From: a virus
Reading direction: 5' to 3' (one strand)
Virus record (IMG/VR): IMGVR_UViG_3300027899_000014
Coordinates: 1-64,000 of that record
Length of the DNA stretch: 64,000 nucleotides
Shown here: positions 2,217 to 50,121 of the stretch, piece after piece
Layout: every line of letters starts with the position of its first letter
How positions within the stretch are numbered: the first letter of the stretch is position 1
The notes under the pieces: generated by a model
The model's input: the letters and a program-made list of their open reading frames with translations, nothing else
Database searches by the model: none
Told to the model about the DNA's origin: nothing
Made by a program: the position numbers and the translations under genes

Positions 2217-3584
2217 ACCCTTTGTTTCAATTTGTGACTTTTTATTTCGCTCAACCAAGAATTGAGTTGCTGGTTGCCCGCTCTCAGAAATATCCTTTTG
2301 AGCAGATTCTTCTACATCATATAGTTTCATTCTAGATCTATCAACTCCTATAACAAATCGTTTATAATAACCAGGATCTGCGTACCTATTCTTAAGTTGC
2401 TTAACCATTATTTGGTTTAAGTTTTCAAGTTCTTCTGTAGCAATTAAAGCAAACATCATATCAGCAGTTGCAGGTAAACCAAACGATTCTGAAGTATCTG
2501 TTAATTCTACATCAGTGTTACCAAAACCACCTCGAGTTGTTTGGGTTGCACTTAACAAAGGTACATCATATTCAACTGCAAGACCTCTAAGTTCTTCAGC
2601 TATCGATTTAACATAAGTGTATGAATTAACACCTGAACCATTTTTAATACGTGAAGAGCAACAGATATTTAAATAATCGATAATTATCATATCAGGTTTG
2701 AAGTTACGTTTGATCTTCAATTCTTCTAATAAAGCCTTAAAATGACCTGAATGGGCAGTTGAAGTTGGATATTGTTTAACTATAAGTTTACCGGAAGTCT
2801 TCTTAATCAATTTATTAATACGATTATTATATGTAGGCAAATCTATTGTAGCCATCTCATTCATATTCATATTAAGAAGATTGGCATCAATACGTTCAGC
2901 AATACGTTCTTCTGCCATTTCCATAGTAATATACAAAACATTCTTATTTTGTAGAAGACTGGATGCTGCAACATGACACATGAATAATGATTTTCCCACA
3001 GCAGTTCCAGCAAGTATGATATTCAGAGTCTTTTTAGATAATCCACCCTTTGTAATTTTATTAAAGATATCAAGATCAAATGGAATCTTTTCTTCAACTC
3101 TATGATAGAAATCATATCGTTCTTGATAATCTTCGAGATAATCATGACCTACAGAAGAATCAAAACTTACTGCTAATGCATCTGATAAAAGACTTGGTAT
3201 AGCATCTTCAGTTTTGTCCTTATGTTTACCTTCTACAATATCATAAGCATCAATGATCGCATTAATAACGGCTCTATTTTTACAGAATTTTTCTGTATTA
3301 TCATAAAGCCATTGTTCATTATCAGTTTTAAAGGTTAACTCATTGATATATTTTTCAATATCCTGTAATTGGTTATCACGCAATTCAGATCTATTACTAA
3401 TCTGAATTGCTAATATGTCAAGAGTTATTGTTGAATTATATTGATCAAAAAAATTAATAATTTCTTGTGAGATTACTTTTTCATACTGATCATTAAAATA
3501 TTCAAGTTTAATGAATGGAATAACTTTTCGTGCATAAGTCTCATTGTGTATCAGATTGCTCAATATAGTCTGTGTTATCGTCAT
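2205..3584 (-). CDS. 41: Replicative DNA helicase, T4 gp41 (DnaB-like)
   Basis: A 459-residue protein from the ATG at 3584, which has GGCGGA a few bases upstream; an in-frame ATG 27 bases further out has no clear ribosome site and would deepen the overlap with the preceding gene. The N-terminus (TQTILSNLIHNETYARKVIPF) resembles that of T4 gp41. The RecA-like core contains Walker A AGTAVGKS (about 192-199), Walker B MIIIDYL and the DRSRMKLYDVEE segment near the end. Length matches T4 gp41 (475). This is the hexameric 5'-3' helicase of the phage replisome, working with the primase, gp43 and gp45. Unlike uvsX next door, it carries no intein. Confidence 0.93.
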   Translation of the reverse strand: MTITQTILSNLIHNETYARKVIPFIKLEYFNDQYEKVISQEIINFFDQYNSTITLDILAIQISNRSELRDNQLQDIEKYINELTFKTDNEQWLYDNTEKFCKNRAVINAIIDAYDIVEGKHKDKTEDAIPSLLSDALAVSFDSSVGHDYLEDYQERYDFYHRVEEKIPFDLDIFNKITKGGLSKKTLNIILAGTAVGKSLFMCHVAASSLLQNKNVLYITMEMAEERIAERIDANLLNMNMNEMATIDLPTYNNRINKLIKKTSGKLIVKQYPTSTAHSGHFKALLEELKIKRNFKPDMIIIDYLNICCSSRIKNGSGVNSYTYVKSIAEELRGLAVEYDVPLLSATQTTRGGFGNTDVELTDTSESFGLPATADMMFALIATEELENLNQIMVKQLKNRYADPGYYKRFVIGVDRSRMKLYDVEESAQKDISESGQPATQFLVERNKKSQIETKGFTF

Positions 3585-3891: not shown

Positions 3892-4483
3892 TATCTTCTC
3901 CTAAATCATCTTCAATTAATGCCAATTCTTCTTCAATAGATTCATCTGATATAATAGCACCATTTGAAATCTGATAATTAATTTTAATCCAATCTTGGAA
4001 ACTAGTACTTGATATAATAGGTAACCAAAAGTCTTTAGTGTCAGTATCTTTTATACGATACTTTTTATCTTCAACCTCACCAGTATCTCTATTAACTTTG
4101 GAATACCAACCATTACTTGGTTTGATTACATGACCTGATTCTAAAGCCATTTCTAATAAGCCAGACCATTTGCTAATACCACCTTCAAACTTAACAGTAA
4201 CAGGTATCTTTGATTTTTCGCGTGAATGTCTAGACTTCTCTACATTGATGATGAAGTTATAACCTGCCAATTCAGTTCCATCTTTTTCTTGTTGACGACC
4301 AAGTATAAAGATGTTATCAGCCGAAAGGTATATACCTGATCCACCTGATACTACTGGCTTACTATACATCTCTTGTGTATTATGCGAAATTATTCCATTC
4401 TTTAATATATAATCATGTGTTGGAGTCTCAATATCATAAACATCTGCTCTTCTAGTATTAAATTTAATCGATTTTATTTTCAT
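3884..4483 (-). CDS. uvsX: UvsX recombinase C-terminal half with N-terminal split-intein (IntC) segment
   Basis: The 199-residue product starts at ATG 4483, preceded by TAGGAG with ideal spacing; the frame is open further upstream but those codons overlap the endonuclease gene. Residues 1-35 are a C-terminal split-intein fragment ending in IISHN (block G). Residue 36 is Thr, the +1 nucleophile. From TQEMYSKPVVSGG onward the sequence is the T4 UvsX C-terminal region, which in T4 continues directly from NHTYE. Trans-splicing with the 5291-6154 product would join NHIYM to TQEMYSK and give a 362-residue RecA-like strand-exchange protein. The acidic C-terminus is typical of UvsX. Confidence 0.92.
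   Translation of the reverse strand: MKIKSIKFNTRRADVYDIETPTHDYILKNGIISHNTQEMYSKPVVSGGSGIYLSADNIFILGRQQEKDGTELAGYNFIINVEKSRHSREKSKIPVTVKFEGGISKWSGLLEMALESGHVIKPSNGWYSKVNRDTGEVEDKKYRIKDTDTKDFWLPIISSTSFQDWIKINYQISNGAIISDESIEEELALIEDDLGEDSE
4379..4483 (-). other. Split intein C-fragment (IntC, 35 residues) in uvsX
   Basis: Contains block F (DVYDIETPTHDYIL) and block G (GIISHN) with the terminal Asn followed by extein Thr. Size and split position match canonical split inteins (about 90 N plus 35 C). Confidence 0.9.
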
Positions 4484-5252
4484 TTTTACTCCTACAATTA
4501 TCAAAATGCCAACGTTTACCACCAACTTCTTTATTACAATGCGGACATAATAAAATTTTATGTACCCAAGTTTTACCAAATACTGGATTTAATTCACCAA
4601 TTCTACTTCCAGTTTTCAATGTTCTTGATGCATAATCCATAGATTTTACCGAATTTATCCTACAAGTTTCTTGTTCTTTTGTAAATTTAGATCTACCTAT
4701 TTTTTGACTTCTGCATTTAAGATCATATTGGCCTTGTTTAAAAATATCACTTAAATTATTATTGTCTGAATATTGTTGTAAAGACTTTGTCACAAAATAG
4801 CGTTTTATATCAAATTTTTCTGCTATAGTATTATAATGTAGTTTTTCATTAATAAATAAGTGCCATATTGTTTTTGAAATATCGTCATAATTTTTAAATC
4901 CTGCTAATATCGCAATTTTATCTTTCTTGTCTACATAAGATTTTGATATTGATTTGCCAACCAAAATATTTGATTTTTTTCTTATCCAACCATATACTTT
5001 ATTATTAGTCACCCCGCATCTTTTGCTCATCAATTTGCAGGCTGACCATAAACCTATATTATCTGGATTCATTTTTGCTAGAAGTTGATGTGCTACATAA
5101 TGTTCTTCAGCAGTTAATTCACAAATATTTTCCTCATCATCAGTACCACCTACACATCTAGGAACAATGTGGTGTTTTTCAATATACCCAATAAGTTTTG
5201 TTCTATTTTTTGCTCTATTAATTAATAATTCATAATGCTTTAAATAATCCAT
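4464..5252 (-). CDS. HNH homing endonuclease inside fractured uvsX
   Basis: A 262-residue free-standing endonuclease gene between the two uvsX halves. Near the N-terminus it has HHIVPRCVGGTDDEENI followed by LTAEEHYVAHQLLAK, the H-H, N, H arrangement of HNH nucleases of the phage homing type. A Cys/His pair near the C-terminus (LCPHCNKEV, then HFDNC) looks like a zinc finger. AAAGGA precedes ATG 5252. The stop overlaps the start of the UvsX C-half gene by 20 bp. A late-type box (5285-5292) precedes it. The presumed role is to cut intein-less uvsX alleles and spread the split intein. Confidence 0.88.
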   Translation of the reverse strand: MDYLKHYELLINRAKNRTKLIGYIEKHHIVPRCVGGTDDEENICELTAEEHYVAHQLLAKMNPDNIGLWSACKLMSKRCGVTNNKVYGWIRKKSNILVGKSISKSYVDKKDKIAILAGFKNYDDISKTIWHLFINEKLHYNTIAEKFDIKRYFVTKSLQQYSDNNNLSDIFKQGQYDLKCRSQKIGRSKFTKEQETCRINSVKSMDYASRTLKTGSRIGELNPVFGKTWVHKILLCPHCNKEVGGKRWHFDNCRSKNENKID

Positions 5253-5292: not shown

Positions 5293-6154
5293 AAAAACCT
5301 GATTTCACATCCAATTCCATTCCTTCAACTAAATCCTCAACTAAAACCCATTCACCATTTATCATAAACTTATGACCTTGAGTAAATGATAATATAGTTC
5401 CATCTTCCATTTCAATATCTGTAATAAAGGCATCTTCGTATTTAAAAACATTTGTTACTGGTTGAAGACCTTTAGTAGTTTCTACTAACATTCCTGGAAT
5501 AATATCTTTTAAGCTTATAGATCCTTTATCTGAGATAACTTCCATTTCTTCAGTTCCACACATATAGATATGATTCACTGCTACCATAGGGATATCATAC
5601 TTAACTAGATATGGAGTAATCATTCTAAAGATAGACTTCATTTGGCGAGCACGAGTCATATCTTGAGTTGACTTACCTTCAATAGCATCTTCCATTTCTT
5701 TCTTTGATGACATATTACCAAGAGAATCAATAACAAAGATAACCTTATCACCCCGTTTGATTTCTTGCAACTGATGCATTATATCAAATTTGAACTCTTC
5801 CATATTCATGATAGGTGTATGTACTACACGTTCTTTATCAATACCCAGAGAATCAAAATAAGATTCAGGAGTACCAAACTCACAATCATAGAATACCAAT
5901 ACAGATTCTGGATACTTATCCATGTAAGACTTTGCAAGGATTAATGAGAATAATGATTTGAAATGTTTACTTGGTCCACAGAATAAGGTAAGACCTGGAG
6001 TTAATCCACCATCAATTCTACCTGATAATGCAATATTAAGAGCAGGAATTGGAGTTGTTACCATATCTTTTTTAGTAAAGAACTTTGAAGATGATAATAT
6101 CGAAGAATCTTTAATCGTACTGTTCTTTTTAATTCGTTCTAATAATGCACTCAT
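5291..6154 (-). CDS. uvsX: UvsX recombinase N-terminal half with C-terminal split-intein (IntN) segment
   Basis: A 287-residue protein; ATG 6154 has GAGG upstream. Residues 1-198 are the UvsX/RecA ATPase core: Walker A region GPSKHFKS (60-67), catalytic Glu in FYDCEFGTPE (89-97), Walker B VIFVIDSLGNM (138-148) and the motif-4 strand VAVNHIYM (191-198). Residue 199 is the Cys that opens the intein. Residues 199-287 carry block A and block B, the latter with T-x-x-H (TQGHKFM). The break falls just before the DNA-binding L2 region, a functionally critical site as is usual for inteins. ATP-dependent strand exchange requires splicing to the 3884-4483 product. Confidence 0.92.
   Translation of the reverse strand: MSALLERIKKNSTIKDSSILSSSKFFTKKDMVTTPIPALNIALSGRIDGGLTPGLTLFCGPSKHFKSLFSLILAKSYMDKYPESVLVFYDCEFGTPESYFDSLGIDKERVVHTPIMNMEEFKFDIMHQLQEIKRGDKVIFVIDSLGNMSSKKEMEDAIEGKSTQDMTRARQMKSIFRMITPYLVKYDIPMVAVNHIYMCGTEEMEVISDKGSISLKDIIPGMLVETTKGLQPVTNVFKYEDAFITDIEMEDGTILSFTQGHKFMINGEWVLVEDLVEGMELDVKSGF
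5294..5560 (-). other. Split intein N-fragment (IntN, 89 residues) in uvsX
   Basis: Starts with CGTEEMEVISDKGSISLKDI (block A), contains DIEMEDGTILSFTQGHKF (block B, Thr and His present) and ends at a stop after LDVKSGF. No endonuclease domain is present in the fragment. Confidence 0.9.
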
Positions 6155-41201: not shown

Positions 41202-42311
41202 TCAGAAATTTAGAAGCATAATAGGCGCTTCTAATTCTATTTGACCATCATCATAAAAACCAAACGGGGTTAATTCTTCCTCAATTAATCTCATTTGATT
41301 TTGATACATTATTTGTCTAAGTTCTACGTTATTTAATTCTTTAAAATATGGTTGAGTGGTTAACCACGAAAAAATAACAAGTCCCATTACTAAATCATCT
41401 TTGTAACTATCATCTGCTGCGTATGAATCCTTTACTTCAATAAAGGTAGATAGTTCAGAAATCGTATCCATATCATTAATAAGTAGTTTATTTTCTACTA
41501 ATAACGATTTTAAATTGGCACAACCAATTCTTTTTGTTTTTTTATCGGTATTTACACCTAAAAAAGATCTACCACCAAATCCGCCTCCGGCAGATTGTCC
41601 TCTATCTAATCCCTTTGCTTTTTTATTTATAATAATCATATTTTCATATTCTAACTCATGATGTAATATATGTGCCACCTGTTCAGATATATTTATCTCA
41701 ATTAAAACGTGTGCATTATTATAATCTTTTGCAACTTTATAAATTATATTTGGAAATAGTAAAGGACTTATATGATTATCTTTATACTTAGCAACTTGTT
41801 TATATGGTATTTCTGTGATATCTATTACCTGAATTACCGAATTATCTCCACCAACTCCCTTTGACGGATCAATTGTCATTACATAGTTTCTACCTCTTTC
41901 AGGTATTTCAAAAACATCTAATCCTTCTCTTGAGTAATCAATAACACTTGGTGATAGTTTAGATAAAGTATCGGAAGGTATCAATGTTAAACTTGAACCT
42001 AAGAACGAACAATTGTGAGAAATTAAATCATTTGAATAATATAAATTTCCATTATCAACATTTATTGGATCATATACATCTATTTCACCATAAGAAATAA
42101 TATCAACAATTATTTTATCATTTAAAACATCTCCATTACTCAATAATCCTGCAATAATTTCTTTATCATTATCTATAAATCTATGATTTTCTGTTACTAT
42201 AATATTACTATTATCTACAAATGATATTTGTATAGTGTTCCTTTTATTTTTAATGATACCATCAAAGGATTGAAAACCAGAAGGAGTCAATATTTTATAT
42301 CTAGAGTTCAT
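41202..42311 (-). CDS. 17: Terminase large subunit gp17, C-terminal half with long IntC
   Basis: A 369-residue product. Residues 1-100 are an unusually long C-intein fragment: ILTPSGFQSFDGIIKNKRNT, block B IIVTENHRF (T-x-x-H), and block F/G YDPINVDNGNLYYSNDLISH plus N. Extein begins at Cys101 (CSFLGSSLTLI), the gp17 sequence. The nuclease domain follows with MTIDPSKGVGGDNSVIQVID (first Asp), HVLIEINIS (Glu) and KDDLVMGLVIFSWL (last Asp). It would be trans-spliced to the 43086-44000 product. ATG 42311 lies within the end of the endonuclease gene (11-bp overlap) with no clear ribosome site, so coupling is likely. Confidence 0.93.
   Translation of the reverse strand: MNSRYKILTPSGFQSFDGIIKNKRNTIQISFVDNSNIIVTENHRFIDNDKEIIAGLLSNGDVLNDKIIVDIISYGEIDVYDPINVDNGNLYYSNDLISHNCSFLGSSLTLIPSDTLSKLSPSVIDYSREGLDVFEIPERGRNYVMTIDPSKGVGGDNSVIQVIDITEIPYKQVAKYKDNHISPLLFPNIIYKVAKDYNNAHVLIEINISEQVAHILHHELEYENMIIINKKAKGLDRGQSAGGGFGGRSFLGVNTDKKTKRIGCANLKSLLVENKLLINDMDTISELSTFIEVKDSYAADDSYKDDLVMGLVIFSWLTTQPYFKELNNVELRQIMYQNQMRLIEEELTPFGFYDDGQIELEAPIMLLNF
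42012..42311 (-). other. Split intein C-fragment (IntC, 100 residues) in gp17
   Basis: Contains block B, F and G, so the split lies between blocks A and B. This is the atypical arrangement described for the metagenomic TerL inteins (AceL-TerL class), whose IntC also has an F-x-x-F-x-G-I, T-x-x-N-H and YDPINV layout. Confidence 0.88.
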
Positions 42312-43059
42312 TTTGTAATATTTGCGTTTTTCTTAATATATTTAATATAGTTCTAGCTGATACATTAAAATCAGATGCAACTGATTTAGCAAAAACATTT
42401 TCATATGAACACCACTTTCCATTTTTAGCTATATAATTATAAGGTATTTCTAATTTAGGTTTTGATTCATATAAAGATAATACTTTAGAATATAATTCTA
42501 ATAATTCTTTTTTCTTTTCTTCCTTTATGTTTATAGTTTTATTCTTTCTTATACTAGACCATAATTTTCTAGTATCTTTAGAAGGAACTCTTCCCTGTAA
42601 TTTTAAATTGGGTTTACCCAATTTACTTTTTGATATATTTGTTTTTGTTTTTTCAGTTCTTGTTGAACCTGTATTTGGGTTGAATTCTTTTGATAAACCT
42701 TTAGCCCAATGATTTTCCGATGCCATTTTTCTTTGTTCTAAAGTAAATTTTTTTCCAGGAATACCTCCATTTAAACCGTTTTCAGGTTCCAGGTTAGCCC
42801 ATTCTTTAGATTCTACTATATTATTTTCTTCTGATAACTGTAAAGCAGGTTCAACTATAGATGCATCATGATATAACTCAGATACCCACAGGGTAACTAT
42901 ATGTTCTTTACCATGTTTTTTAATATGGCGCATCCAATGTTTACCAGAACCATTATATTTGTATGGATCTTTAGTGGTTTTACCAAAATATTTTAATCCA
43001 GTTATATTGTGTTGTTTGATATAAAGATATGTAGGTTCAATGGGAGTATAAATATTCAT
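42301..43059 (-). CDS. GIY-YIG-like homing endonuclease inside fractured gp17
   Basis: A 252-residue protein. The N-terminal part (YLYIKQHNITGLKYFGKTTK, YNGSGKHWMRHIKKHG, HIVTLWVSELYHD, LQLSEENNI, EWANLEPENGLNGG) is a divergent GIY-YIG core of the same family as 17987-18631, here with Glu residues kept in LSEENNI. NUMOD-like basic linkers follow (KFTLEQRKMASENHWAKGLS, ISKSKLGKPNLKLQGR), then a C-terminal helix-turn-helix (SVASDFNVSARTILNILRK). AGAGGA precedes ATG 43059. Its presumed job is to spread the terminase split-intein locus. Confidence 0.8.
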   Translation of the reverse strand: MNIYTPIEPTYLYIKQHNITGLKYFGKTTKDPYKYNGSGKHWMRHIKKHGKEHIVTLWVSELYHDASIVEPALQLSEENNIVESKEWANLEPENGLNGGIPGKKFTLEQRKMASENHWAKGLSKEFNPNTGSTRTEKTKTNISKSKLGKPNLKLQGRVPSKDTRKLWSSIRKNKTINIKEEKKKELLELYSKVLSLYESKPKLEIPYNYIAKNGKWCSYENVFAKSVASDFNVSARTILNILRKTQILQNEL

Positions 43060-43080
43060 ACTGGTGTCCTCTTATGACAT

Positions 43081-43115
43081 TAGAGCTAGTAGATGTTTGC
43101 TGCATCATGACTAGC
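43081..43115 (-). promoter_or_regulatory. Conserved homing-endonuclease leader hairpin (copy 3)
   Basis: On the minus strand: outer stem GCTAGT/ACTAGC, bulge CAT, inner stem GATG/CATC, loop CAGCAAA, bulge T, then TCTA. It overlaps the last codons and the stop codon of the gp17 N-half, so the intein end is coded within the RNA element. An AATAAATG late-like box adjoins it (43115-43122). Confidence 0.65.
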
Positions 43116-44000
43116 ATTTATTAAATTATATGCTTCTTCTATAGGTATATTTATAATTTTTCCAGTTTCAGTATCTTGCAAAGTTATAATAGTATTTCCT
43201 GCAACACACAATACTTCCTGGTTAAACTTTAGTTCACCTAATTGTCGACGTTGTTCTTCTGCCCAAGCAGCGTCTCTTCCAGGAATTTCCCAATATGGAA
43301 TAAACAGAGGTACAAAGTCATTATGACCTTTTTCAGCATCAGTCCAAAACTTCCAAAAATGATTATACCCAAGTGGAGTAGAACTTAATAAAATTTTAGA
43401 TGTTTGACCTGAAGAGATTGTAGGATAAACAGAAGTAAAAAAATCTTCAGCAACTGAATTTGGAATAAATGCAGTTTCGTCAATATATAACATATTGACG
43501 GTTTTACCACGGATACCTGAACCTGTAGTAGCAGCAGTAAATACTTTTGATTTATTTTCTAATTCAATATCACCTTTATTCCATGTTTTTACTCCGCATT
43601 TTAGCCAATGAGGTAATAACTCAAACATCAATTGGAGCCTACTCATCACCTCTCTAGCAGCAGAAGATTTATTTGCAAGTATTGCTACATTTTTAGCATT
43701 ATTAAAATTAACATACCAAAGAATATATGCAGCAGAAGTTTGTGTTTTACCTTGTTGACGACCCTCCATGAGAATAACTTTACGATTCTCATGGATTATC
43801 TTTACCTTTTTTCTTTGACATTCATAAAGATTAAATGGTATTATACCATAGTCAAGTGAGATAATTTTACAGTATGTATCTATAAAGTAAATAGGATCTT
43901 GTGAACATTTAATATATTCTTCTACTTGTTCTTGAGTATATTGAACATCTACATTTGCCGCTTTTAAATTAGGATTGCTATTATACGTTAATGATGCCAT
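43086..44000 (-). CDS. 17: Terminase large subunit gp17, N-terminal half with short IntN
   Basis: A 304-residue product. Residues 1-264 are the packaging ATPase: Walker A EGRQQGKTQTSA (79-90), Walker B NMLYIDETAF (169-178), coupling motif LLSSTPLG and the end of the ATPase domain at LGELKFNQEVL. Residue 265 is the intein Cys; the 40-residue IntN (CVAGNTIITLQDTETGKI and onward) then reaches a stop. Splicing joins EVL to CSFLGSS and yields a 533-residue motor-nuclease. It starts 12 bp after gp15; no gp16 (small terminase) gene lies between. Confidence 0.93.
   Translation of the reverse strand: MASLTYNSNPNLKAANVDVQYTQEQVEEYIKCSQDPIYFIDTYCKIISLDYGIIPFNLYECQRKKVKIIHENRKVILMEGRQQGKTQTSAAYILWYVNFNNAKNVAILANKSSAAREVMSRLQLMFELLPHWLKCGVKTWNKGDIELENKSKVFTAATTGSGIRGKTVNMLYIDETAFIPNSVAEDFFTSVYPTISSGQTSKILLSSTPLGYNHFWKFWTDAEKGHNDFVPLFIPYWEIPGRDAAWAEEQRRQLGELKFNQEVLCVAGNTIITLQDTETGKIINIPIEEAYNLINASHDAANIY
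43089..43208 (-). other. Split intein N-fragment (IntN, 40 residues) in gp17
   Basis: Begins with Cys and contains only block A (CVAGNTIITLQDTETGKIIN), ending after HDAANIY. Short IntN fragments are the hallmark of atypically split TerL inteins. Confidence 0.88.
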
Positions 44001-46689: not shown

Positions 46690-49600
46690 CTAATTTAATA
46701 TACCAATATATTTTATTTCTTCATCTAATCTTACACAGAATTCAGAAGTTATACCAATATCAATAATAGCCTCATATTTTATTTCTTCATCTAGTGCTAC
46801 ATTATAAGAAATAGCTTCGTCTAATATAACATAATATTTTATTTCTTTATCAAATAAAACACCAAAAAATATTAATAATTTATCAACAAATAACTGTATT
46901 ATCGCTGTAGCATTTGAAATTACTGTGATAGTTTTACGTATAAGTTTAACTAAAGAAATATCTATAATAGATTCTACATGTAAAACCTTAGAAATCTCTT
47001 TAGTAACTGTATAGAAAATATCTGTTGTTGAATAAGCAGTTTTTATAATAGTTCTACTTATAGATGTTGTATTATTAGAAGTAGCAAATAGATATAGCAA
47101 CTTTATAAAAGCTATTGTCAACGTACTTGCGGTAATAGAAGAACTTATTAAACTTCGTAAAGTGCTTCTAGATAAAGAAGTAATTCCAGAAACACCAGAA
47201 TTTATAGTTTTAGATATAACTTTTATAATAACCGATGCAGGAATAATAAACAAAATTAAAGTTTTTGAAATCCGTTTAACAAAATAAGAACTTCCAGAAG
47301 AAGTAGTATTCAATACTTTTTGTAACTTTTTGTATAATACTAAGGTACCTGAAGAAGTACCTAACATGTTTCTATTAATTGATCTTCTAATAACCGTAGT
47401 TGGAGAAGTAGATACTATCATTGCCAATAAATGCAATGCATAATCATATAAAGCCACAGCAACAGTAGAAGAACTTAGCATAGTTCTCAATATAGATTTA
47501 TAAACTAAAGCAGTTGTATTAGCTATATTATTAACAGTTTTACTTAATTTCTTAATAACATTAATATTTGCAGTATTAAATACACTCAATACTGTTTGTA
47601 ACTTTTTATATAATACTAAGATACCTGAAGTAGTACTTACTATAGTTTTATTAATGGCTCTTATAATAATTGTTGTAGGAGATATAGATATACTCAATAC
47701 TTTTTGTAACTTTTTATATAATACTAAGGTGCCTGAAGAGGTACCTAATATGCTTTTATTAATTAATCTTGTAATAACTGATGTTGGAGATGCAGATGCT
47801 ATCATAGTCAATAACTTAATACTAAAAGCAAATAGCACTGCAGAAACAGAGGAAGAACCAACCACAAGTTTATTAATTAATCTTATAATAAAAACAGAAA
47901 CTGCAGTTGTACCAAGAACAGTTTTATTAATTACTCTTGTACTAACAGTATTAACTGATGATATACCTAAAATAGTTTTTCTAATTGCTCGAGTAATAAC
48001 TGCACTAGGTGACGAGGTTGCTAATATTAATACTAAATAAACAGAAGAAATATACCATGCAGTTATAGCACTAGTTGTAACAACTGCAGTTTTATTAATG
48101 GTTTTTAATAAAGAATATGTTACTAAAGTAGAACTTAATAATATTTTGTTAATTAATTTAGTAAAAACTATAGTTGGAGTAGTTGAACCTATTAAGGTTT
48201 TCTTTATTAATCTTATAATAAAAGCGGCACCAGAAGAGGTACCTAATATGCTTCTATTAATTGCTTTAGTAATAACCGTAGTTGGAGATGTAGATGCTAT
48301 CATTACTAATAGATGTAATACATAATCAAATAAAGCAGCGGTACCAGTAGAAGTGCCTGTTAAGGTTTTACGAATAGATTTTACTAGACTAAACGCACTA
48401 TTAGATAAACCTAATGCAATCTTTAATGTTGATTTTATAACAACTGAAGTACTTGAAGAAGTACTAAAGGCAACTTTTGACATTAATTTTAAAGCAATAG
48501 AAGTTGCTGAAGTTGTACCAACAACTGTTTTATTGACGACTCTTCTAATAACCGTAGTTGGAGATGTAGATGCTATCATTGCTAATAGATGCAATACATA
48601 ATCAAATAACGTCGCTGTACCAGAAGAGGTGACTGTTAGGGTTTTATTGATTGCTCTTCTAATAACTGATGTAGGAGATGTAGATGCTATCATTGCTAAT
48701 AGATGCAATACATAATCAAATAAAGCAGCGGTACCGGTAGAAGTGACTGTTAGGGTTTTATTGATTACTCTTATAAAAACAACTGCACATGAAGAAGTAC
48801 CTAACATGCTTCTATTAATTGATCTTCTAATGATAGATGTTGGAGATGTAGATGCTATCATTGCTAATAGATGTAATACATAATCAAATAACGCCGCTGT
48901 ACCAGAAGAAGTGACTGTTAGGGTTTTATTGATTACTCTTACTATGCTAGAAGCACCTGATGTTGAAACCAACAATATTTTTAAAATATTTCTACTAATT
49001 GTAATACTAACATTTGATGTACCTGTTAAGGTTTTATTGATTACTCTTTTAACTATAGACGTAATAGTAGTTGAACCTAAAACTATTTTTATAATGGATT
49101 TAATAAAAACTGAAGTAACACTTGTTGAAGAAACAATAGTTTTTATAATGGATTTAATAAAAGCTGCAGTAGGAATAGTATAACCAAGTGCTATTTTTAC
49201 AGTATTTCTTACTAGACTAGAGGCAATACTAGTTGAACCCGTTAAGGTTTTATTGATTACTCTTTTAACTATAGATGTAATAGTAGTTGAACCCATTAAG
49301 GTTTTATTAATTGCTCTAGTAATAACCGCAGTTGGAGATGTAGATGCAGCCATTAATAATAAACGAATACCATAAACATATAAAGTAACTAATGTTGTGG
49401 TAACAGTAGAAGTGCCTATTATAGTTTTGTTAATTCGTTTAGTAAAACTAGAGGCAACTGATGTTGTAGCAAGTATAGTTTTTGCTATTAATCTTGTAAA
49501 AATAGAGGTTGGACTTGTTGAACCTAAAGCTATTTTGTTAATTCGTTTAGTAAAACTAAAGGCAATGGATGTTGAAGAAACAATAGTTTTTATAATGGAT

Positions 49601-50121
49601 TTAATAAAAACAGAAGTTGCACTAGTTGAAGAAACAATAGTTTTTATAATGGATTTAATAAAAACTGAAGTTGCACTAGTTGTACCAAGTACGGTTTTAT
49701 TAATTGCTCTTTTAATGATAGATGTAGGAGATGTAGATGATACTAGTACTAAGAACTTCAGTATATAAGCATATAGAACACCTATTGCCGAGCAAGAACC
49801 AATTATAGTTTTCTTAACTAATTTAGTAAAAACAGAAGTGGGAGTTGAATTTACTAAACTCGCATACACGATATAAAATGATCCTACATAAGTAGGATCA
49901 ATATAATCTCCTCCTACAGTATAATCATATAAGTATGAATAAGAAGATGGCACACCTGCTATAGTTTTACCAATCCATCTAATTGATGCAGCAGCAACCA
50001 ATAAGGATACTAATCTATAGGCGGCAATACTTTTTCTAAGTGAAGCTGAGGGAGTTGTAGAAGCTACAAGACTTTGAGTATATGTTGTTCCTTGATATAC
50101 CGTTCTTAATAGTAATGACAT
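46690..50121 (-). CDS. Giant 18-residue-repeat protein (1143 residues), unknown
   Basis: Not recognised. After about 80 unique residues the protein consists of roughly fifty units of 18 residues, for example KTIVSSTSATSVFIKSII, alternating hydrophobic strands with Ser/Thr turns and one or two Lys/Arg per unit. Variant units contain LFDYVLHLLAMIAS and LVLYKKLQKVL. Acidic residues are almost absent in the repeats apart from the FDY Asp, so it is strongly basic. The last 60 residues switch to repeats of LDEEIKY type. Strand-turn periodicity suggests a beta-solenoid or fibre. It lies just upstream of gp13, where T4 carries fibritin (wac). Its ribosome site is inside an inverted repeat with a late promoter. 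Confidence 0.8.
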   Translation of the reverse strand: MSLLLRTVYQGTTYTQSLVASTTPSASLRKSIAAYRLVSLLVAAASIRWIGKTIAGVPSSYSYLYDYTVGGDYIDPTYVGSFYIVYASLVNSTPTSVFTKLVKKTIIGSCSAIGVLYAYILKFLVLVSSTSPTSIIKRAINKTVLGTTSATSVFIKSIIKTIVSSTSATSVFIKSIIKTIVSSTSIAFSFTKRINKIALGSTSPTSIFTRLIAKTILATTSVASSFTKRINKTIIGTSTVTTTLVTLYVYGIRLLLMAASTSPTAVITRAINKTLMGSTTITSIVKRVINKTLTGSTSIASSLVRNTVKIALGYTIPTAAFIKSIIKTIVSSTSVTSVFIKSIIKIVLGSTTITSIVKRVINKTLTGTSNVSITISRNILKILLVSTSGASSIVRVINKTLTVTSSGTAALFDYVLHLLAMIASTSPTSIIRRSINRSMLGTSSCAVVFIRVINKTLTVTSTGTAALFDYVLHLLAMIASTSPTSVIRRAINKTLTVTSSGTATLFDYVLHLLAMIASTSPTTVIRRVVNKTVVGTTSATSIALKLMSKVAFSTSSSTSVVIKSTLKIALGLSNSAFSLVKSIRKTLTGTSTGTAALFDYVLHLLVMIASTSPTTVITKAINRSILGTSSGAAFIIRLIKKTLIGSTTPTIVFTKLINKILLSSTLVTYSLLKTINKTAVVTTSAITAWYISSVYLVLILATSSPSAVITRAIRKTILGISSVNTVSTRVINKTVLGTTAVSVFIIRLINKLVVGSSSVSAVLFAFSIKLLTMIASASPTSVITRLINKSILGTSSGTLVLYKKLQKVLSISISPTTIIIRAINKTIVSTTSGILVLYKKLQTVLSVFNTANINVIKKLSKTVNNIANTTALVYKSILRTMLSSSTVAVALYDYALHLLAMIVSTSPTTVIRRSINRNMLGTSSGTLVLYKKLQKVLNTTSSGSSYFVKRISKTLILFIIPASVIIKVISKTINSGVSGITSLSRSTLRSLISSSITASTLTIAFIKLLYLFATSNNTTSISRTIIKTAYSTTDIFYTVTKEISKVLHVESIIDISLVKLIRKTITVISNATAIIQLFVDKLLIFFGVLFDKEIKYYVILDEAISYNVALDEEIKYEAIIDIGITSEFCVRLDEEIKYIGILN

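What the first reader, a model, noticed from the sequence alone, without database searches (positions are those of the whole stretch)
41202..44000. Terminase gp17 is fractured by an atypically split intein (40-residue IntN, 100-residue IntC)
The N-half carries the ATPase domain and stops 40 residues into an intein that contains only block A. The C-half begins with a 100-residue IntC carrying blocks B, F and G, then Cys and the nuclease domain. This split position is the rare TerL type (AceL-TerL class), different from the uvsX intein in the same genome. The two intein classes therefore coexist 36 kb apart, each with its own endonuclease family.
Basis: partly seen in the sequence, partly recalled or inferred. 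Interest (0 to 1): 0.9.

Follow-up and report, generated by a model that had tools for sequence, protein, structure and literature searches.

The report
Phage terminase rejoined by split intein
This ocean-type phage makes the motor protein that packs its DNA as two separate pieces, which a self-splicing protein element (a split intein) should weld together; a DNA-cutting gene sits between the pieces and the element moves between phages. The arrangement itself is a known kind, but relatives carry the same motor protein in three and even four pieces.

Summary
On the minus strand terL is two ORFs: 43086-44000 (264 extein residues + 40-aa IntN) and 41202-42311 (100-aa IntC with blocks B, F, G, then Cys+1 and the nuclease domain). 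A homing-endonuclease ORF (42301-43059) lies between them. The spliced product is 533 aa and aligns without a gap to intact TerL (533 aa, 90-93% identical) of close relatives that lack the intein. IntC matches the Cat intein (PDB 6dsl), the designed consensus of AceL-TerL and GOS-TerL, so this is a new member of the atypical TerL split-intein kind. The uvsX intein in the same genome is canonically split (89/35) around an HNH gene.

New here: (1) the intein halves are 99% identical at DNA level to those of another phage, while exteins differ by about 20-27% (dS 0.02-0.04 against 1.4), with the step at the splice junctions: recent intein transfer. (2) The endonuclease is a chimera: nuclease domain of a free-standing GIY-YIG-type family, C-terminal domain shared with other terL-intein endonucleases. 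(3) In related contigs TerL is split into three ORFs (L002, L090, L134, L142) or four (L098) by two or three atypical split inteins. Splicing itself is inferred, not assayed.

The parts
43209..44000 (-). TerL N-extein, 264 aa: ATPase domain, Walker A GRQQGKT and Walker B MLYIDE intact
   Evidence: Terminase_6N E 9e-19; gap-free to intact TerL
43089..43208 (-). IntN, 40 aa: block A, about 30 aa alignable with other TerL inteins plus a ~10-aa tail; stop at 43086-43088
42301..43059 (-). Homing endonuclease gene, 252 aa, GIY-YIG type; its 3' end overlaps the IntC start codon (42301-42311)
   Evidence: PHROG_314 E 8e-10; 47 relatives; family member L043 passes the Pfam GIY-YIG cut-off
42745..43059 (-). 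Endonuclease N-domain (residues 1-105), nuclease module of the free-standing family, Y-x10-YFG spacing
   Evidence: up to 79% identical to free-standing genes; AF2 pLDDT above 90 for residues 11-90, bb-a-b-a
42304..42612 (-). Endonuclease C-domain (residues 150-252), shared with other terL-intein endonucleases
   Evidence: hhalign E 4.9e-13, prob 97.9
42012..42311 (-). IntC, 100 aa: block B (TENH), block F (VYDPINV), block G (LISHN)
   Evidence: 6dsl E 1.4e-12; Foldseek 6dsl E 2e-6, gp41-1 E 6e-5
41202..42011 (-). TerL C-extein, 269 aa, starts at Cys+1 (CSFLGSS), RNase H-like nuclease domain
   Evidence: Terminase_6C E 6e-12; T4 gp17 Foldseek E 4e-20
5294..5560 (-). Second intein of the genome: uvsX IntN, 89 aa, canonical split
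   Evidence: PHROG_97 UvsX E 1e-66 for the extein
4464..5252 (-). HNH homing endonuclease between the uvsX halves
   Evidence: Pfam HNH E 2.5e-5; PHROG_655 E 6e-46
4379..4483 (-). uvsX IntC, 35 aa, followed by Thr+1

Best explanation
A fractured terL gene. Its two products are rejoined after translation by an atypically split class-1 intein of the AceL/GOS-TerL type. IntN (40 aa) and IntC (100 aa) associate, Cys1 takes the N-extein, Cys+1 attacks, the terminal Asn cyclises, and intact 533-aa gp17 results while the intein is lost. The gene between the halves encodes a GIY-YIG-type homing endonuclease, expected to cut intein-free terL alleles so that repair copies the intein and endonuclease into them. 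Shown: anatomy, exact reading across the junction, empty sites in close relatives, purifying selection on intein and endonuclease, recent transfer of the intein. Inferred: the splicing chemistry, the cut site, and homing by this nuclease.
For: Both halves plus blocks A, B, F, G and the HN|C junction. Spliced TerL aligns without gaps to intact TerL of L055-L057. L056/L057 read QEVL|CSFLGSS and L055 QEVE|CSFLGSS uninterrupted. Window against L002: IntN dS 0.04, IntC dS 0.02, last 37 endonuclease codons 0.04, endonuclease core 0.7-0.8, exteins 1.4; the identity step lies within 3 nt of the splice junctions. IntC tree joins window with L002 (100/99); extein tree joins window with L003 (90/88). Control: IntC silent sites are free to diverge (window-L003 IntC dS 0.68, dN/dS 0.16). 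Rfam finds no intron.
Against: No splicing assay, proteome or transcript. The endonuclease core is more diverged than the intein halves around it, so the cassette did not move as one block in the last transfer, or the endonuclease was exchanged afterwards. The extein-tree discordance rests on 90/88 and 97/87 support. The GIY-YIG call for this copy rests on motif spacing, fold topology and one relative passing Pfam; Foldseek gave no significant match.
Confidence: 0.93

Rival explanations
1. terL is interrupted by a group I or II intron carrying the endonuclease, and the halves are joined at RNA level, as reported for phage ICP1 terL.
For: Endonucleases often sit in phage introns; ICP1 terL is RNA-spliced (PMC10448857).
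Against: No Rfam match above gathering score in the window and no intron at relaxed threshold in the locus. The in-frame extensions are recognisable intein halves under purifying selection, and leaving out exactly them gives the gap-free protein.
Confidence: 0.02
2. The two halves work as separate, non-covalently associated proteins, like the genes-in-pieces ribonucleotide reductase, and the intein remnants are inert.
For: Such a case exists for phage NrdA (cited in PMC10448857). The split falls between the ATPase and nuclease domains.
Against: All catalytic positions are kept (Cys1, block B His, terminal His-Asn, Cys+1), and IntC shows dN/dS 0.16 between diverged copies. Inert remnants would decay.
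Confidence: 0.04
3. The split is an assembly or sequencing artefact.
For: Metagenomic contig.
Against: Identical in an independent assembly (L001, 8.8 kb at 100%); same architecture in about 40 distinct contigs.
Confidence: 0.01

Closest known systems
AceL-TerL / GOS-TerL and the designed consensus Cat (atypical split inteins; 25/104, 37/115 and 30/104 residues, PMC11766414)
   Same: Host gene TerL, split between blocks A and B, short IntN, Cys+1; Cat is the best PDB match
   Different: IntN 40 aa with a non-homologous tail; IntC about 45% identical to Cat; lies outside the Cat clade, with an unsplit intein as sister
Fractured genes (Dassa et al. 2009; not readable here, cited through PMC10448857 and from memory)
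   Same: Gene broken by a split intein with a free-standing endonuclease gene between the halves
   Different: Here a chimeric GIY-YIG-type endonuclease, and relatives with two or three fractures in one gene
gp41-1 split intein (6qaz, 6riz)
   Same: Phage split intein, Hint fold, C-terminal similarity E 1.8e-5
   Different: Canonical split and a different host gene; it resembles the window's uvsX arrangement more
TerL inteins of Campylobacter phages (IBB_35, CP220, PC5)
   Same: Inteins of the same fold in T4-like terL
   Different: At the Walker A and Walker B sites. IBB_35 was described as an intein plus an intron (PMC3322345), though its second interruption carries IntN/IntC sequences. In PC5 the halves are 26 kb apart

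Membership tests
AceL/GOS-TerL type atypical split intein | Inserted in the phage large terminase gene | tested here: met
AceL/GOS-TerL type atypical split intein | Split between blocks A and B (IntN about 25-40 aa, IntC about 100-115 aa) | tested here: met
   40/100
AceL/GOS-TerL type atypical split intein | Sequence or fold relationship to Cat (6dsl) | tested here: met
   E 1.4e-12; Foldseek E 2e-6
Close homologue of Cat (narrow clade, not needed for the type) | Falls in one clade with Cat | tested here: not met
   Separate clade with contiguous L062 as sister (95/92), Cat clade apart (99/95); a 109-column tree, so moderate weight. It is of the same type but not a close homologue.
AceL/GOS-TerL type atypical split intein | Splices in trans | not testable with these tools
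   needs purified fragments
Fractured gene | Split-intein halves flank a free-standing endonuclease gene | tested here: met
Class-1 intein | Cys1, block B His, terminal His-Asn and Cys/Ser/Thr+1 | tested here: met
   Sequence; block B His43 invariant in the 16-row TerL-C alignment
GIY-YIG homing endonuclease | GIY-YIG catalytic domain | tested here: inconclusive
   Window copy has no Pfam hit; relative L043 of the same N-domain family passes PF01541; Y13 to Y24 spacing and bb-a-b-a fold agree; no significant Foldseek match
Group I or II intron | Structured intron RNA in the locus | tested here: not met

The most novel reading that the evidence does not exclude
T4-like phages carry terL in three or four separately translated pieces, rejoined by two or three mutually orthogonal atypical split inteins. 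The middle pieces have the order IntC-extein-IntN, the topology used artificially to make circular proteins, so the inteins must not cross-react or the motor fragment would be cyclised. The window's intein and chimeric endonuclease belong to this modular system, in which inteins, nuclease domains and targeting domains are exchanged separately.
Probability: 0.75. Interest if true: 0.78.

Novelty: new member of a known kind. Interest (0 to 1): 0.55.

Why it matters
TerL is an essential motor, so a phage that encodes it in pieces depends on protein splicing to make particles. The set found here holds contiguous, split, endonuclease-bearing and endonuclease-free versions at one site, which makes the order of events in gene fracturing testable. 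The near-identical intein in two otherwise diverged phages, cut off at the splice junctions, is unusually clean evidence of recent intein mobility. The three- and four-piece TerL genes offer naturally selected sets of atypical split inteins that should not cross-react, which protein engineers currently assemble by design (tandem trans-splicing, PMC12707363).

Tried and rejected
RNA intron: Rfam on the window and, at relaxed threshold, on the locus: nothing. Late promoter TATAAATA as a control element for the second half: 17 matches in the window, 20 expected by chance, uninformative. Fold search with the endonuclease model: no significant match; Slx1 and the UvrC GIY-YIG domain appear only below threshold. 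PDB profile search with the endonuclease family: none. hhalign of the window-type nuclease domain against the PF01541 domain of other terL-intein endonucleases: not alignable. A cross-intein reaction between terL and uvsX fragments was considered: terL-IntN (block A only) and uvsX-IntC (blocks F, G only) together lack block B, so that pairing cannot make a complete intein; this is reasoning, not a test. The Dassa 2009, Thiel 2014 and GOS-TerL papers are not held, so details from them are second-hand.

Full report
WHAT IS THERE. The window is G000:C1:1-64000 of a 65,175-base virus record with T4-like genes: portal, sheath, major head protein, UvsX, gp41-like helicase and DNA polymerase. Nearest cultured relatives of the terL DNA include Pelagibacter phages Mosig and HTVC008M and cyanophages, at about 65-68%. 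On the minus strand terL is two ORFs. TerL-N (43086-44000) has 264 extein residues and ends in a 40-residue IntN. TerL-C (41202-42311) starts with a 100-residue IntC ending in SHN, then Cys+1 and the nuclease domain. Pfam and PHROGs recognise both halves; IntC matches the Cat intein (6dsl, E 1.4e-12) and gp41-1, and the AF2 model of TerL-C matches T4 gp17, Cat and gp41-1 in the PDB. An independent assembly (L001) is identical over 8.8 kb.

THE JUNCTION IS EXACT. Three close relatives (L055, L056, L057) have one uninterrupted TerL frame reading QEV(L/E)|CSFLGSS. Joining the window exteins gives 533 residues, 90-93% identical to these and without a gap.

THE INTEIN HAS MOVED RECENTLY. L002 is another T4-like contig. 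Against the window its exteins differ (73-82% nt, dS 1.4), but IntN is 99.2% and IntC 99.0% identical (dS 0.04 and 0.02) and the step lies within 3 nt of each splice junction. The high identity runs on into the start and the last ~110 nt of the endonuclease gene, whose core differs (dS 0.7-0.8). The control is L003: its IntC differs from the window's at dS 0.68 with dN/dS 0.16, so intein codons are free to drift at silent sites and are under purifying selection. In trees IntC joins window with L002 (100/99) while the C-extein joins window with L003 (90/88). The mosaic means that endonuclease core and intein halves have separate recent histories.

THE ENDONUCLEASE IS A CHIMERA. The 252-aa ORF between the halves has 47 relatives in viral contigs, mostly free-standing between other phage genes. 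Its residues 1-105 belong to that free-standing family (up to 79% identity), whose member L043 passes the Pfam GIY-YIG cut-off. Its residues 150-252 do not: they are homologous to the C-terminal domain of endonucleases in other terL inteins (hhalign E 4.9e-13; single-sequence E about 1e-6 to 1e-4). Those carry a PF01541 GIY-YIG domain (L117) or an HNH_3 domain (L119). So one C-terminal domain, presumably the targeting part, is found with three kinds of nuclease module at the same site (function inferred). The window-type nuclease domain is not alignable to the PF01541 domain of L117-type proteins by hhalign, so the GIY-YIG label for this copy rests on motif spacing, fold topology and L043.

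THE OTHER INTEIN. uvsX is split canonically: IntN 89 aa, IntC 35 aa, Thr+1, with an HNH gene between. The same arrangement is in L147 (77% identical N-half).

THE FAMILY AND ITS RANGE. One profile scan confirmed 110 relatives, of which 80 were kept. About 40 distinct ones have TerL split at this site, usually with a gene of about 0.6-0.8 kb between the halves. Four are contiguous mini-inteins (L062, L083, L084, L133), and L062 is the sister of the window clade (95/92), apart from the Cat clade. Either the split arose more than once or L062 was rejoined. Comparison with contiguous inteins shows about 30 alignable IntN residues; the window's last ~10 are a tail, and the first IntC codons (MNSR) overlap the endonuclease gene in another frame. 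Nearly identical contigs exist with a split intein without (L067) and with (L070) an endonuclease-like gene.

TERL IN THREE AND FOUR PIECES. T4-like terL in these contigs has three intein sites: Walker A, Walker B and the QE|C site of the window. L002, L090 and L142 are split at Walker A and QE|C; L134/L135 and L101 at Walker B and QE|C (L101's last piece runs off the contig); L098/L099 at all three, giving four ORFs (1026-1439 frame, 2538-3287, 4227-4967, 4968-6065 in L098). The joined exteins align over the TerL length with Walker motifs in place. Middle ORFs are IntC-extein-IntN, the permuted order used to cyclise proteins (established knowledge), so cross-reaction would be self-defeating. 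A search of the held literature found three-segment trans-splicing only as an engineered scheme; that search is not exhaustive.

VERDICT. The finding is real and correctly read. As a thing in itself it is a new member of a known kind, the atypical TerL split inteins in fractured genes. Its surroundings make it more interesting: very recent transfer ending at the splice junctions, nuclease-domain exchange in the endonuclease, and relatives with multiply fractured TerL. Splicing, homing and orthogonality are inferred and await assay.

Noticed in passing
L098 1026-6065 (IMGVR_UViG_3300020198_000018); also L099: TerL in four ORFs with three atypical split inteins (Walker A, Walker B, QE|C); the third split has no endonuclease gene (ORFs directly adjacent).
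   Followed up: partly
L002 1902-6107; L090 2773-6206; L134 3441-7842; L142 399-3897; L101 3108-6776: TerL in three ORFs joined by two atypical split inteins; middle ORF has IntC at the start and IntN at the end. L101's last piece runs off the contig.
   Followed up: partly
Campylobacter phage PC5 (KX229736), 99273-99989 (+) and 72400-73728 (-); L227, L146: TerL halves are 26 kb apart on opposite strands without an endonuclease between them; 29-aa IntN (FIDE|CVAGDTKITV) and an IntC start (MYEVLTPNGF...SHN|CAFIDKW). Similar TerL intein matches occur in dozens of cultured Campylobacter phages, mostly annotated as ordinary terminase genes.
   Followed up: partly
L145 1532-6778 (Campylobacter phage IBB_35): Published as terminase with an intein and an intron (PMC3322345); the second interruption carries IntN (CLEDTRVQVRNKYTN) and IntC-like (MLSKFKVLTSNGYKSF) sequences, so it looks like an atypical split intein.
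   Followed up: partly
L067, L071-L073 against L070, L074, L075: Nearly identical contigs differ by presence of a 253-aa endonuclease-like ORF between the terL intein halves; without it the halves stay split, 4 nt apart.
   Followed up: partly
L068, L069, L076: TerL-N, IntN and a GIY-YIG-like region are fused in one ORF overlapping the IntC ORF; IntC ends in PSTQ|T instead of SHN|C.
   Followed up: no
L038 2204-4923: UvsW-like helicase gene broken by a GIY-YIG-type endonuclease of the window's family, with a canonical ~41-aa IntC.
   Followed up: no
window 46690-50121 (-): 1143-aa ORF built of imperfect repeats (about 27/54/108 bases) of a hydrophobic S/T-rich unit (e.g. TSPTSVIRRAINKTL); function unknown.
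   Followed up: no
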